Of a stretch of 64,000 nt of DNA, positions 41,406-46,995 are shown one piece after another (position 1 is the stretch's first letter; each line of letters starts with the position of its first letter). Under the pieces are notes generated by a model, which did no database searches, was not told the origin of the DNA, and saw only the letters and a list, made by a program, of their open reading frames with translations. Made by a program: the position numbers and the translations under genes. The DNA is from Psychrobacter arenosus (GTDB lineage Bacteria > Pseudomonadota > Gammaproteobacteria > Pseudomonadales > Moraxellaceae): positions 1,364,001-1,428,000 of the forward strand of contig NZ_LR884459.1 in NCBI RefSeq assembly GCF_904848165.1, read 5' to 3'.

Positions 41406-41457
41406 AAAAATCCTCCCTAGCCCTCCTTTTTTAAAGAAGTGTTAGGGAGGATTTTTT
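41406..41457. repeat. Palindromic repeat flanking kptA (left), also terminator of lspA
   Basis: AAAATCCTCCCTA ... TAGGGAGGATTTT is a 13-bp perfect inverted repeat with internal CCCTCCTTTTTTAAAG. It belongs to the same family as the copies at 184-227 and 42177-42216. The T-run after the right arm lets it act as a plus-strand terminator. Confidence 0.75.
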
Positions 41458-41543
41458 GGTCTCTGGGGGCAATAGCTAGTCCTGCTAACCCAATAAACAA
41501 CAGTGATATAATCGGACATCCCTATAAAAAAACGAGAAAAATT

Positions 41544-42092
41544 ATGAGCAAAGCCAACACTAATGCCAGTAAATTTCTAAGTTATATCTTACGCCACGAG
41601 CCAGAGTCTATAGGGTTATCCTTAGATACTGAAGGTTGGGCCAATATAGAAGAACTTATCCGGCTCGCTAATGCATCAGGCAACCCGCTAACTGTAGAGC
41701 AGCTTTTTTCTATTGTAGAGAAGGACGAAAAACAACGCTTTTCTCTATCGTCAGATAATAAAAATATCCGTGCTGCTCAAGGCCACTCGTTAAAGTCTGT
41801 GAGTTTAGATCTAACCGAAGCCACGCCGCCTACCCATTTATTTCATGGCACTGCAGAGCGCTTTATGGAGAGTATTAATTCAAAGGGATTGTTAGCGCAG
41901 CAAAGACAGTATGTCCACTTAACTGAAAACCGTAATACTGCGATTGAAACAGGCACACGCTATGGCAAAGCCGTGTTGTTGAGTGTGGACCGCCAAAGAA
42001 TGGTTAGCGAGGGGCACAAATTTTATCAAGCTGACAATAGTGTTTGGCTGACGTTGGCAGTGCCGCCTGCTTATATTGGTGTTGTATGCTAG
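41544..42092 (+). CDS. kptA: RNA 2'-phosphotransferase (KptA/Tpt1)
   Basis: The 182-aa NAD-dependent enzyme removes an internal RNA 2'-phosphate. In eukaryotes this is the last step of tRNA splicing; in bacteria its natural substrate is uncertain. Visible motifs: LSYILRHEPESIGL (catalytic Arg and His), IRAAQGHS, LFHGT, YVHLTENRNTA and GKAVLLSVD. Length matches the family. The ATG at 41544 is chosen because the longer upstream frame enters the repeat. It is flanked by repeat copies at 41406-41457 and 42177-42216, and sits between lspA and fkpB. Confidence 0.94.
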   Translation: MSKANTNASKFLSYILRHEPESIGLSLDTEGWANIEELIRLANASGNPLTVEQLFSIVEKDEKQRFSLSSDNKNIRAAQGHSLKSVSLDLTEATPPTHLFHGTAERFMESINSKGLLAQQRQYVHLTENRNTAIETGTRYGKAVLLSVDRQRMVSEGHKFYQADNSVWLTLAVPPAYIGVVC

Positions 42093-43693: not shown

Positions 43694-44323
43694 TTAATCG
43701 TCGCTATTAAATCTTAATGCTGAAGTTTTAATGCCCCAAATAAGCTCTACAAAGGCGCGGTTATTGGTAAGCGGCTCACTGTCTAAGATTAGGACATAGC
43801 CGCTGCCATCTATCCATAAAAAGACAAAGCTGGTACTCGGCATCAGCAAATCAACGTGTTTGAAAAATGATACTGCTTGGCCTTCAACCGCCCAACCGCG
43901 TTGTTGTTGACGGGTCAAAAAGTCAAAGAAATCAGCCGCAGCTACGCTAAGCATTTCGCTTTCTTCTTGCGTATAGCCAGTACGAGCTAAACAAAACCCT
44001 TCATTAGAACCAATAGCGGCACGGCGCTGACCGGACAAACTCGCTACCACGTAAGGTAAGAATTGATCAAGCGGCATATTGGGCGCGGTCAGTTTAGTAG
44101 CTAATTCTTCAATCCAACCATTTTCAATAAAATCCGCTAGCATTCTATGCGGATACTTGGCAGTCCACTGCTCGACACTCATACAAGTCTTGCCTGAGAG
44201 TAAAGATTGTAGCGCTTGCTGATGCTCATCAGGCTCGTTATAAGCGAAGGCTTCAAAGACACCAGCGGGCGTTAGCATGACATAGGTTTCGTTAGCAGGA
44301 CCAATGTGTCGATCAGTACTCAT
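43694..44323 (-). CDS. Unknown protein, last gene of the Roadblock/PAS cluster
   Basis: The 209-aa soluble protein is not recognised. It has no signal peptide or membrane helix. The C-terminal third (SFVFLWIDGSGYVLILDSEPLTNN-like region, about 164-190) is an alternating hydrophobic beta region. The rest is helical, with an Arg/Gln-rich stretch (TRQQQRGWAVEGQ). It follows the 204-aa unknown gene by 172 bp on the same strand and so probably belongs to the five-gene unit starting at 46995. Confidence 0.7.
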   Translation of the reverse strand: MSTDRHIGPANETYVMLTPAGVFEAFAYNEPDEHQQALQSLLSGKTCMSVEQWTAKYPHRMLADFIENGWIEELATKLTAPNMPLDQFLPYVVASLSGQRRAAIGSNEGFCLARTGYTQEESEMLSVAAADFFDFLTRQQQRGWAVEGQAVSFFKHVDLLMPSTSFVFLWIDGSGYVLILDSEPLTNNRAFVELIWGIKTSALRFNSDD

Positions 44324-44495
44324 AGAGCTTACCCTTTAAATAAAGTATCTTTCAATAAAGTGTCTTTCAAATACAGCGTTCTACAAAGACAGTATTGTTA
44401 AAAAACAGTTTTCTGCAAAAACAGTGTCGTTCAAATACTGTGTTATGACAACGTCATTCAACTAAAAGCAACTACCAAGATTGCCGTTAATACAG

Positions 44496-45110
44496 CTAAA
44501 CGCTAGCCTCACGGGCAGGCATCTGCTCTAATTGCCGCTGGCAAGCTACCCAACGTTCGTCAAATACCCAACCGTTGCGCGCCAAGCGAAACCATACCAA
44601 TGAAAACCCAATACGGTCTACGCAGGCTAGGCAATGGCCTAAAAAGTCATCTTCAATTTGCGTCAGCTGTTGCTTATCATTACTCGCTTTAGCTTTAATC
44701 AGACGATCCCCAAAATCCGCTGCGATTTGCCGCGCATCATCGCTACTAACACGTAAGCTATGGGAGGCCACGTTTAACGATGGGGTTACCAATACGCTCC
44801 AACGGGTAGCCACTTCACTAATCCGCTGAACATAACTATTTTTTTCTATACAGTCTCTAAAATGATTGCGCGTCGGTAGGGGCAAACGATCCGCTACAGT
44901 GGCCAATATAGCCTCCCCTTGTAGCGGCATATCATACCAACAGCCGTAGAATAAATCCGCTAATGCCCCTTGCAAAGGTTCATTTTGCGGAAATTTTCGG
45001 GCTAAGCGTAATCTTTGTTCGTGTAGCATCAGCTCGGTAGGTCGTTTTAGCACTTCCCTTGAATAATAACGGAACTGATGCTTTTCACTGTTAATAGCTT
45101 TATTAATCAT
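44496..45110 (-). CDS. Unknown protein in the Roadblock/PAS cluster
   Basis: The 204-aa, mostly helical, soluble protein is basic at its N-terminus (REVLKRPTELMLHEQRLRLA) and is not recognised. Conserved-looking features are FYGCWYDMPLQGEAI and several Cys residues (CWYD, RDCIEK, HCLACVDRI, ACQRQ). It lies 81 bp after the PhnD-like gene. No enzymatic motif was seen. Confidence 0.7.
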   Translation of the reverse strand: MINKAINSEKHQFRYYSREVLKRPTELMLHEQRLRLARKFPQNEPLQGALADLFYGCWYDMPLQGEAILATVADRLPLPTRNHFRDCIEKNSYVQRISEVATRWSVLVTPSLNVASHSLRVSSDDARQIAADFGDRLIKAKASNDKQQLTQIEDDFLGHCLACVDRIGFSLVWFRLARNGWVFDERWVACQRQLEQMPAREASV

Positions 45111-45191
45111 GCTCCTAGCCCTATATAAGTTCCGATATTAATCTTTAGTCTGCGCTGTAAGCGACCGCTATATCTAGCCTCGAGTGGCTGC

Positions 45192-45938
45192 TTAATCCAA
45201 TAAAGTTTCCATCAGATCAATCATAAACTCGCCGTCTTCTTCATCCATGGCTTCAAAGCCGGAAGGCATGCCCAGTTCTGCTAATAACGCCTTACCTTCT
45301 TCGGTAGTTTGCAACGATAAAATGACATTGGCTAAAACGTCAGCATGCTCAACATTATCTTTGATCAGTACCACGTGACAGATATCCGCCAAGTCGCTTT
45401 CAATCAACACGTTAAGCTGAGCTTTGGTGAGTTTAGACAAGCTATTAAATACTTCAGCTAAGAAAAACCCTATTTCCGCCTGACCTTGGATAACTTGACG
45501 AGCAGCCGCTTGATAAGACTCGGTAATCTGAAAGTCTAAGTCTGCCTCTAAAATATCTACCGCTTCTAACAGACGTAGGCCTATAAGCTTGACGTCTCTA
45601 TTGTCCGCCATCGCGACTTTATTGCCCGGCTGAATAGCATCGAGACTGTGTATCTCACTTTTGGCCGAGGACACAATGACCATTTCATCAGACTTACCAA
45701 TCGGGCGCGCGACCACTCGATAGCCTTTTTCCCGTATTAGCGCTGCCGCATCAAATGGGTTGGCATAAATTAATCCGACCTCTTGCGACGCTAGCATCTC
45801 GTTTTGCTCAGCATGCGAAGCTGGGGTCAATAAATGGACGCCTAAGTCTGATTGACGCTGCAACAAGTTATTGAACATGTGCCAACCGGCAAAGTGCTCG
45901 GGCGAAAAATCAGGGGCAATTAAAAAATTATAGGTCAT
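45192..45938 (-). CDS. PhnD-like binding-protein fold without signal peptide
   Basis: The 248-aa protein has the PhnD/SsuA/transferrin (periplasmic-binding type II) layout. It begins MTYNFLIAPDF with no signal peptide. It has GLIYANPFDAAALIREKGYRVVARP in the first lobe and KVAMADNRDVKLIGLRLLEA plus QVIQGQAEIGFFLAEVF in the second. In this family the protein is normally exported and feeds an ABC importer. Here there is no signal and no permease or ATPase gene, so a cytoplasmic ligand-sensing role is inferred. Its 27-bp distance from the PAS gene supports a shared transcript. Confidence 0.82.
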   Translation of the reverse strand: MTYNFLIAPDFSPEHFAGWHMFNNLLQRQSDLGVHLLTPASHAEQNEMLASQEVGLIYANPFDAAALIREKGYRVVARPIGKSDEMVIVSSAKSEIHSLDAIQPGNKVAMADNRDVKLIGLRLLEAVDILEADLDFQITESYQAAARQVIQGQAEIGFFLAEVFNSLSKLTKAQLNVLIESDLADICHVVLIKDNVEHADVLANVILSLQTTEEGKALLAELGMPSGFEAMDEEDGEFMIDLMETLLD

Positions 45939-45965
45939 AGTTACTGTCCCTTATAAGGTAACTTA

Positions 45966-46457
45966 TTATGGTGTCTCAGCTCGCATTTGCGCGTAAGTCG
46001 CTGCGGCTTCTTCAATTTTAGTACGTGACGGCTTGCGACGCACTGAGGTATAGCCTACGGTTTCGCCGCGACGAACGTTAGGTACCGCGGTAGCATAAAC
46101 CCAATAATGGGTGCCGTCTTTGCATAAATTTTTGACATAGCCATGCCATTTCTCACCCGCTTTTAGCGTTGCCCACATTTCAGCATAGACGGCAGAGGGA
46201 ATATCAGGGTGGCGTAAAATATGCTGCGGACTGCCGATGAGCTCGTCTAAACTGTAGCCACTAATCTCAACAAAAGCATCGTTGGCATGCGTGAGCACCC
46301 CATCAAGATCGGTACGAGAGACAATAAGCTTACCATCGGGATAGTTACGCTCTTCATCCGTATCATAAACTAGGCGCGTAGTCCCATCATAAAACTTGAG
46401 CTGGTATTCAGTAGCGGGTGCCTGAGGTTTCGGCATATCGGGAAGTTGAATGGCCAC
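45966..46457 (-). CDS. Stand-alone Aer-like PAS protein
   Basis: The 163-aa soluble protein is essentially one PAS domain (about 40-150) of the Aer N-terminal kind: RTDLDGVLTHANDAFVEISG, YSLDELIGSPQHILRHPDIP, MWATLKAGEKWHGYVKNLCK and VPNVRRGETVGYTSVRRKPS. In Aer this domain binds FAD and senses redox state for aerotaxis. Here no HAMP or methyl-accepting signalling domain follows, so output must go through another protein. FAD binding is likely but not proven by sequence. Confidence 0.9.
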   Translation of the reverse strand: MAIQLPDMPKPQAPATEYQLKFYDGTTRLVYDTDEERNYPDGKLIVSRTDLDGVLTHANDAFVEISGYSLDELIGSPQHILRHPDIPSAVYAEMWATLKAGEKWHGYVKNLCKDGTHYWVYATAVPNVRRGETVGYTSVRRKPSRTKIEEAAATYAQMRAETP

Positions 46458-46632
46458 GTGGCTCTCCTATGCTTAAAGTATTAAAGACTTGAGTACTAAC
46501 AATGCTAACAGGGTGATGGGTCATTATGAGGAGCTTGGGGATGAGCAGCTTAGCGGGGTAACTGACTTAAGCTAAACAACCTATCGGCTTGATAAATAAC
46601 AAATCATCGCGCGATTGTTAATGACTAGCTTA

Positions 46633-46995
46633 TTAAATAAGTTTCGATAAAGCTTCAGAAGCACGTTTGATATCTAGGAAAATAAGACCTAGCTTAGCAT
46701 TGGGCTTAGCCATCACCGTCAAAACGGCTTCTTCACCAGCGGATGTCATGATGACGTAGCCTTTTTCACCTTGCACCATAACGCGATCAATACTACCACG
46801 TGCCAATTCGCGACCTGCTCGATCGCCTAAAGACATCAAAGCTGCCGACATGGCGCCCACTCTATCTTCGTCAATACCGGCAGGCAATGCTGAGGCAATC
46901 ATTAGACCATCGGTCGAGATCAATGCTGAAGCTTCTACATCAGCAGATGAGCTGTTTAGATCGTCAAGTATCTGTTGAAACATATCAGTACGCAT
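46633..46995 (-). CDS. Roadblock/LC7-domain protein
   Basis: The 120-aa protein is a single Roadblock/LC7 (MglB-like) domain: VEASALISTDGLMIASALPA, VGAMSAALMSLGDRAGRELA, RVMVQGEKGYVIMTSAG and ANAKLGLIFLDIKRA-type ending. In other bacteria these proteins dimerise and act on a small Ras-like GTPase (MglA) or on signalling kinases. No such GTPase gene is adjacent. It is the first gene of the cluster, with a gap of 175 bp to the PAS gene. The start may also be the ATG four codons downstream. Confidence 0.93.
   Translation of the reverse strand: MRTDMFQQILDDLNSSSADVEASALISTDGLMIASALPAGIDEDRVGAMSAALMSLGDRAGRELARGSIDRVMVQGEKGYVIMTSAGEEAVLTVMAKPNAKLGLIFLDIKRASEALSKLI

What the first reader, a model, noticed from the sequence alone, without database searches (positions are those of the whole stretch)
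43694..46995. Five-gene Roadblock / Aer-PAS / cytoplasmic PhnD-like cluster with two unknown proteins
Seen: consecutive minus-strand genes encode a lone Roadblock/LC7 domain, a lone Aer-type PAS domain, a periplasmic-binding-protein fold with no signal peptide, and two unrecognised soluble proteins. No MglA-type GTPase, kinase, HAMP or ABC permease gene is present. Known: Roadblock proteins usually regulate Ras-like GTPases, and Aer-PAS binds FAD. Inference: a cytoplasmic redox- and ligand-sensing switch in which the Roadblock protein and the two unknown proteins relay the signal.
Basis: partly seen in the sequence, partly recalled or inferred. Interest (0 to 1): 0.75.

Follow-up and report, generated by a model that had tools for sequence, protein, structure and literature searches.

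The report
Roadblock sensor operon without its GTPase
This is a conserved bacterial sensing operon built around a Roadblock protein, a kind that normally controls a small Ras-like switch enzyme; here and in several related lineages the switch gene is gone while the rest of the operon is kept under strong selection.

Summary
The five genes are real and belong together: the same order occurs in Psychrobacter, Moraxella and Burkholderiales. In many relatives, including the window's nearest one (P. pygoscelis), two more genes sit between the 204-aa and 209-aa genes: a protein of about 420 aa (X) and a small GTPase with the MglA signature. That is the core of the published 'Group 3 MglA' system, here joined by an Aer-type PAS, a PhnD-like protein without leader, and a helical protein. 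By predicted fold the 209-aa 'unknown' is itself a Roadblock protein. The window genome lacks X and has no MglA-type GTPase that I could detect. Of 79 genomes of its genus with this Roadblock gene, 3 have the GTPase beside it, 36 only elsewhere, 40 none detected. Moraxellaceae need three separate changes, most simply losses; GTPase-less operons also occur in Burkholderiales. Yet the Roadblock gene stays nearly frozen (median dN/dS 0.006-0.007). So this is no relic: the five proteins, probably a redox- and ligand-sensing Roadblock scaffold, work without that GTPase. What the module controls (type IV pili?) is inference.

The parts
46633..46995 (-). ROB: Roadblock/LC7 protein, MglB-like, 120 aa
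   Evidence: Robl_LC7 66.1 bits against cut-off 23; only Robl_LC7 match in the genome at E<=0.001; 78-83% identical to Burkholderiales copies
45966..46457 (-). PAS: lone Aer-type PAS protein, 163 aa, GTG start
   Evidence: PAS_3 4.5e-17; Aer PAS 8dik E 1.1e-37; R82, H83, W95, N110 conserved in at least 98% of the seven-gene-clade rows
45192..45938 (-). PhnD-like protein, 248 aa, no leader peptide seen
   Evidence: PF12974 2.8e-33; no PDB relative by sequence at E<=0.1
44496..45110 (-). U204: all-helical protein with EPLQGALAD and LATRWSVL motifs, adaptor-like
   Evidence: AlphaFold2 mean pLDDT 88.9, pTM 0.56; alignments
44324..44495 (-). 172-nt spacer between U204 and U209, the place where relatives carry X and the MglA-type GTPase; no remnant detected
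43694..44323 (-). U209: winged-helix-like head plus Roadblock-fold domain (about residues 82-203)

Best explanation
The cluster derives from a Group 3 MglA/MglB-type operon whose full form is ROB - PAS - PhnD-like - U204 - X - MglA-type GTPase - U209. X and the GTPase were lost in the window's lineage, and the other five genes still work. Shown here: gene order, homology, repeated absence of the GTPase, and strong selection after it. Inferred: ROB (as a homodimer, or paired with the Roadblock domain of U209) is a scaffold; the Aer-type PAS reads redox state through FAD; the PhnD-like protein reads a small cytoplasmic molecule; U204 passes the result on. In the full form the scaffold sets the GTP/GDP state of the GTPase. 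In the window it acts on its target directly, and the face that docked the GTPase now serves another partner. A plausible target is type IV pilus activity.
For: Five genes colinear in 19 of 20 loci and the seven-gene order also in Burkholderiales. GTPase with P-loop and YGxPGQ motif lacking the usual Asp (18 rows). Sister locus L108 (P. pygoscelis) with the same flanks keeps X and GTPase. Three changes needed in Moraxellaceae; window plus core Psychrobacter as one clade rejected, p-AU 0.00056. 40 of 79 genomes with ROB have no detectable MglA-type GTPase. ROB median dN/dS 0.007 in GTPase-less core Psychrobacter (680 pairs) and 0.006 in seven loci of genomes with none detected (20 of 21 pairs). 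Likely helix 2 of ROB invariant at 17 of 23 positions in 82 loci with and without GTPase.
Against: No protein-protein contact, ligand or output was tested. The Roadblock assignment of U209 is not supported by profile-profile comparison with ROB. The operon is not universal: 26 of 105 genomes of the genus lack ROB at E<=1e-30. One lineage does decay: L050 has lost PAS and PhnD and its ROB frame has a stop. In Burkholderiales, L168 keeps the GTPase inside an otherwise GTPase-less clade, so the number of losses there is unsure. A GTPase unlike the models used could have been missed.
Confidence: 0.65

Rival explanations
1. The GTPase is supplied in trans by a paralogue elsewhere in the genome, so the module is still a GTPase system.
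For: 39 of 79 genomes of the genus with ROB also have an MglA-type GTPase, in 36 of them only away from ROB. Of ten GTPase-less genomes searched outside Moraxellaceae one has a copy elsewhere.
Against: The other 40 of 79, the window genome included, have none detected, and 9 of the 10 outside Moraxellaceae have none. The one paralogous locus read within the genus (L065) has its own Roadblock-like genes beside the GTPase. ROB is just as constrained in loci of genomes with no GTPase detected.
Confidence: 0.1
2. ROB now regulates another NTPase, for example a type IV pilus motor (PilB/PilT family), instead of a Ras-like GTPase.
For: Roadblock proteins are predicted regulators of NTPases in general (Koonin and Aravind, as cited in PMC4316618, passage). 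The genome has two PilT-family ATPases over cut-off. The likely GTPase-docking stretch of ROB stays invariant without the GTPase, so some partner must hold it.
Against: No link to pilus genes in the neighbourhoods read, and no interaction data.
Confidence: 0.15
3. The cluster is a relic on its way out after losing its GTPase.
For: The operon is missing from 26 of 105 genomes of the genus at E<=1e-30, and L050 shows real decay.
Against: All five genes have median dN/dS below 0.05 in GTPase-less core Psychrobacter, with ROB at 0.006-0.007; all five stay open and in order in 44 of 44 named Moraxellaceae loci without GTPase in which the U204-U209 gap could be measured.
Confidence: 0.03
4. The five-gene form is ancestral, and X plus GTPase were inserted several times.
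For: Counts of changes on a tree cannot by themselves tell gain from loss (treekit notes).
Against: X, GTPase and MglB are the published core of Group 3 systems (PMC4316618 section 18). The pair sits at the same joint in Moraxellaceae and Burkholderiales; repeated insertion at one joint is unlikely.
Confidence: 0.05

Closest known systems
Group 3 MglA systems of beta/gamma-proteobacteria (Wuichet and Sogaard-Andersen 2014, PMC4316618; sections 14 and 18 and passages seen)
   Same: The full operon of relatives has what the paper lists: an unknown two-part protein, an MglA homologue and one or two MglB homologues.
   Different: Three further components (Aer-type PAS, PhnD-like, U204) are not in the sections I read. 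The window operon has no GTPase and no X.
MglA/MglB polarity switch of Myxococcus xanthus (PMC6876712 passages, PMC7519303 abstract)
   Same: An MglB-like Roadblock protein; in relatives also an MglA-type GTPase. The idea of a helical adaptor resembles MglA-SgmX control of pili.
   Different: The GTPase is absent here; the inputs (PAS, PhnD-like) have no counterpart in what I read; U204 is not shown to be a TPR protein.
Actinobacterial conservons (CvnA-D; PMC4316618 sections 14 and 18)
   Same: Operon with a Roadblock protein and a small GTPase; conservons that lost the mglA gene are reported there.
   Different: Conservons have a histidine kinase and CvnC; neither is found here.
Orphan mglB-3 of Snodgrassella (PMC11112851; abstract, passages and section 19 seen)
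   Same: A lone Roadblock protein (121 aa) with a mutant effect on colony spreading.
   Different: That genome keeps an mglA elsewhere. Whether it has PAS or PhnD-like neighbours was not looked up.
Aer, and the bipartite CetA/CetB energy-taxis receptor (CetB recalled, from no call)
   Same: Aer-type FAD PAS domain; CetB is a PAS protein apart from its signalling partner.
   Different: No HAMP or chemoreceptor partner in the cluster.

Membership tests
Roadblock/LC7 (PF03259) | ROB scores above the curated cut-off | tested here: met
   66.1 bits against 23
Roadblock/LC7 (PF03259) | U209 scores above the curated cut-off or has the fold | tested here: inconclusive
   Below cut-off in all 27 relatives scanned (best E 3.5e-4; 16 of 27 at E<=0.1). 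Predicted fold matches MglB and other Roadblock proteins. hhalign with ROB not significant.
Group 3 MglA/MglB system | MglA-type GTPase gene in the neighbourhood | tested here: not met
   Absent from window and genome. Met in relatives such as L108 and L164.
Group 3 MglA/MglB system | Unknown protein with receiver-like N-terminus and winged-helix-like C-terminus | tested here: not met
   No X in the window. In relatives X is present, but Pfam does not recognise its domains, so its identity with the published protein rests on place and size.
Group 3 MglA/MglB system | One or two MglB homologues | tested here: met
   ROB; U209 by predicted fold only
MglA family GTPase (the relatives' gene) | G3 motif without the usual Asp | tested here: met
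   YGxPGQ in 18 of 18 rows; criterion from PMC4316618 passages
Aer-type FAD PAS | Sequence of the Aer PAS class with FAD-site residues | tested here: met
   8dik E 1.1e-37; R82, H83, W95 and N110 conserved. That these are the FAD residues is recalled.
Aer-type FAD PAS | Binds FAD and changes with redox state | not testable with these tools
   needs purified protein
Phosphonate-binding protein (PF12974) | Family score above cut-off | tested here: met
   115.8 bits against 27
Periplasmic binding protein of an ABC transporter | Leader peptide and a permease gene nearby | tested here: not met
   No hydrophobic leader in the window protein or in the relatives aligned (by eye); no permease gene in the cluster
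Actinobacterial conservon | Histidine kinase CvnA and GTPase CvnD in the block | tested here: not met
   neither in the cluster

The most novel reading that the evidence does not exclude
A Roadblock-based signalling complex that has outlived its Ras-like GTPase in several lineages: two Roadblock-fold proteins, a flavin PAS, a cytoplasmic binding-protein sensor and a helical adaptor signal without any small GTPase, so that the Roadblock scaffold itself is the core of the switch and the GTPase an optional add-on.
Probability: 0.5. Interest if true: 0.77.

Novelty: new variant of a known kind. Interest (0 to 1): 0.6.

Why it matters
MglB-type Roadblock proteins are understood as regulators of a small GTPase. 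Orphan copies are common (328 of 749 in PMC4316618), and in 2014 that paper said none had been characterised; a 2024 paper ties an orphan mglB mutation to colony spreading (PMC11112851), but that genome still has an mglA. Here close relatives with and without the GTPase, in the same operon and with the same flanks, make the question testable: what does a Roadblock protein do once its GTPase is gone? The operon also proposes inputs (a flavin PAS and a ligand-binding protein) for Group 3 Mgl systems. I found no paper describing this operon in searches, which cover open-licence full texts only.

Tried and rejected

Rows dropped and limits: the large tree used 87 of 92 rows; L128, L150, L166 and L183 stop at contig ends and L050 lacks PAS and PhnD. 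It is a 'quick' tree; L188 and L189 are long branches and their states were set by eye. dN/dS (Nei-Gojobori) used only pairs with dS 0.05-2.0; pairs are not independent, and window-L108 pairs are mostly saturated or uncomputable. The core Psychrobacter set mixes genomes with and without a GTPase elsewhere; one search separates seven without. In one search several X lengths in Burkholderiales are too short because the match began inside the gene. In one search I gave 9 of the 11 GTPase-less Burkholderiales loci (L172 and L180 not given); completeness of those genomes is not told. Row L156 was left out of the PAS and PhnD conservation count because its PAS match came in two pieces. Three of the 79 ROB matches are partial (G556, G558, G584). 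X is fast-evolving with and without the GTPase (median dN/dS 0.409 and 0.322), so its selection tells nothing either way.
Full report
What is there. Five minus-strand genes at 43694-46995 were confirmed. In transcription order they encode ROB (Roadblock, 120 aa), PAS (163 aa), a PhnD-like protein (248 aa), U204 and U209. Pfam supports the first three well above cut-off. The nearest solved relative of the PAS protein is the Aer PAS domain. The nearest solved relatives of ROB are Asgard-archaeal Roadblock proteins (7f8m E 2e-28, 9jue), then a conservon Roadblock (3leq), another Asgard Roadblock (7yh1) and MglB (organism names of 7f8m, 9jue and 7yh1). Gaps between the five genes are 175, 27, 81 and 172 nt; a single transcript was not shown.

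The missing genes. In 19 of 20 fetched Moraxellaceae loci the five genes are colinear; the exception, L050, lacks PAS and PhnD. In 9 of the 20 a further 2 kb lies between U204 and U209. In the six of these that I read it holds X (418-463 aa) and a GTPase (178-213 aa as the first start codon gives it). The same seven-gene order recurs in Burkholderiales, with ROB 78-83% identical to the window's. The GTPase has GxxGxGKT, TTV and YGxPGQ, the last without the usual Asp, in 18 of 18 rows, as described for the MglA family (PMC4316618, passages). That paper's Group 3 MglA systems of beta/gamma-proteobacteria consist of an unknown protein (receiver-like plus winged-helix-like), MglA, and one or two MglB (section 18). 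Pfam did not recognise domains in X, so X is matched to that protein by place and size. More distant loci fit the same plan: L189 has U204-like, X, GTPase, U209, ROB, PAS, PhnD; L190 and L192 have TPR protein, X, GTPase, U209-like, ROB; L188 has the plan without the GTPase.

Absence of the GTPase. In 86 rows the U204-U209 gap could be measured: 1.5-2.4 kb with GTPase, 0.9-1.1 kb with X only, 75-180 nt with neither. In the tree set 27 of 87 loci have the GTPase, 60 do not, and at least six changes are needed. In a careful tree of 33 loci rooted on Burkholderiales the window is sister to P. pygoscelis, which has the GTPase (support 99/97); three changes are needed within Moraxellaceae; one clade of window plus core Psychrobacter is rejected (p-AU 0.00056). 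These are trees of the operon, not of the species, and counts of changes do not themselves give direction; loss is the simpler reading. In the Moraxellaceae loci without GTPase X is absent too. In 11 Burkholderiales loci the GTPase is absent and X remains at 278-342 aa. L168 keeps a GTPase within that clade. No trace of X or GTPase was found in the window spacer.

No GTPase elsewhere. In 105 genomes of the genus, ROB (E<=1e-30) is in 79 and an MglA-type GTPase (18-row profile, E<=0.001) in 43. Both are in 39, of which 3 have the GTPase within 5 kb of ROB; 40 have ROB and no GTPase; 4 have only the GTPase (sets compared). The window genome, one contig and 99.98% complete, is among the 40. Its ten matches to the Ras model all lie in open frames of 298-909 aa, so none is a single-domain small GTPase, and PF03029 gives nothing over cut-off. 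Ten GTPase-less genomes outside Moraxellaceae were searched (9 of the 11 Burkholderiales loci, and G419): nine have none, one has a copy elsewhere. Of the two genomes behind the third Moraxellaceae group, G006 has a copy elsewhere and G042 only a 25-aa fragment with a stop.

Still under selection. In GTPase-less core Psychrobacter the median dN/dS is 0.007 for ROB (680 pairs), 0.045 PAS, 0.047 PhnD, 0.036 U204 and 0.032 U209. In GTPase-bearing Moraxellaceae it is 0.053 for ROB and 0.103-0.298 for the others, from fewer and more distant pairs. In Burkholderiales ROB gives 0.042 with and 0.036 without GTPase. In seven loci of Psychrobacter genomes with no GTPase detected, ROB gives 0.006 (20 of 21 pairs). 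The stretch D42-L64 of ROB, which by order of elements should be helix 2 (no model of ROB was made), has 17 of 23 residues invariant across 82 loci with and without GTPase, against 46 of 95 elsewhere in positions 1-118. Both MglB monomers contact MglA through helix 2 (PMC6876712, passage). So something other than the lost GTPase seems to keep that face.

How it may work. Shown: homology, order, absence, selection. Inferred: the PAS reads redox state by FAD; the PhnD-like protein reads a small cytoplasmic ligand; ROB and U209 form the platform; U204 is the adaptor. In full operons the output would be the nucleotide state of the GTPase together with X; in the window it would be direct. A pilus output is suggested only by two PilT-family ATPases in the genome, by MglA-SgmX control of pili in Myxococcus (PMC7519303, abstract) and by the Snodgrassella orphan mglB mutant (PMC11112851; abstract, passages and section 19).

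Novelty. Group 3 Mgl systems and orphan MglB genes are known, and loss of mglA from conservons is reported (PMC4316618 section 14). An Aer-PAS and PhnD-bearing Group 3 operon, and its repeated persistence without GTPase under strong selection, I did not find in print in the searches named under Why it matters. I rate it a new variant of a known kind. Distribution: ROB relatives at E<=0.001 in 44 of 119 genomes of the family, 8 of 16 genera, and at E<=1e-20 in 7 of 398 genomes of the phylum.

Noticed in passing
L065:4962-7330 (G066, same genus as the window): A second Mgl-type locus: a BLUF blue-light flavin protein (PF04940 E 2.4e-22) directly before an MglA-type GTPase and a 138-aa ORF that matched ROB at E 2e-4, with a weak Roadblock-like ORF upstream. 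A light sensor in an MglA operon looks new to me; how common it is was not counted.
   Followed up: partly
L057:3700-10973 and L056: A long cluster with X-like protein, MglA-type GTPase, ATP-binding protein, several Roadblock-like ORFs, a ferredoxin-like ORF (by eye), and by eye a PAS histidine kinase and response regulator.
   Followed up: no
L142 (record BMPS01000005.1): A record titled Streptomyces cinereus carries a Moraxellaceae operon almost identical to L042: mislabelled or contaminated record.
   Followed up: no
L050 (G033): The operon is decaying: PAS and PhnD gone, ROB frame has a stop.
   Followed up: no
L192:6989-11102 and L190:6995-11385: Proteins with a membrane segment (by eye) and TPR repeats lie directly upstream of X, GTPase, U209-like and ROB genes: a possible anchor or effector of Group 3 Mgl systems.
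   Followed up: partly
window 46633-46995: The closest solved relatives of this bacterial Roadblock protein by sequence are Asgard-archaeal Roadblock proteins (7f8m, 9jue), ahead of MglB.
   Followed up: no
window 41439-42092: Plus-strand ORF that looks by eye like a KptA-type RNA 2'-phosphotransferase; not tested.
   Followed up: no
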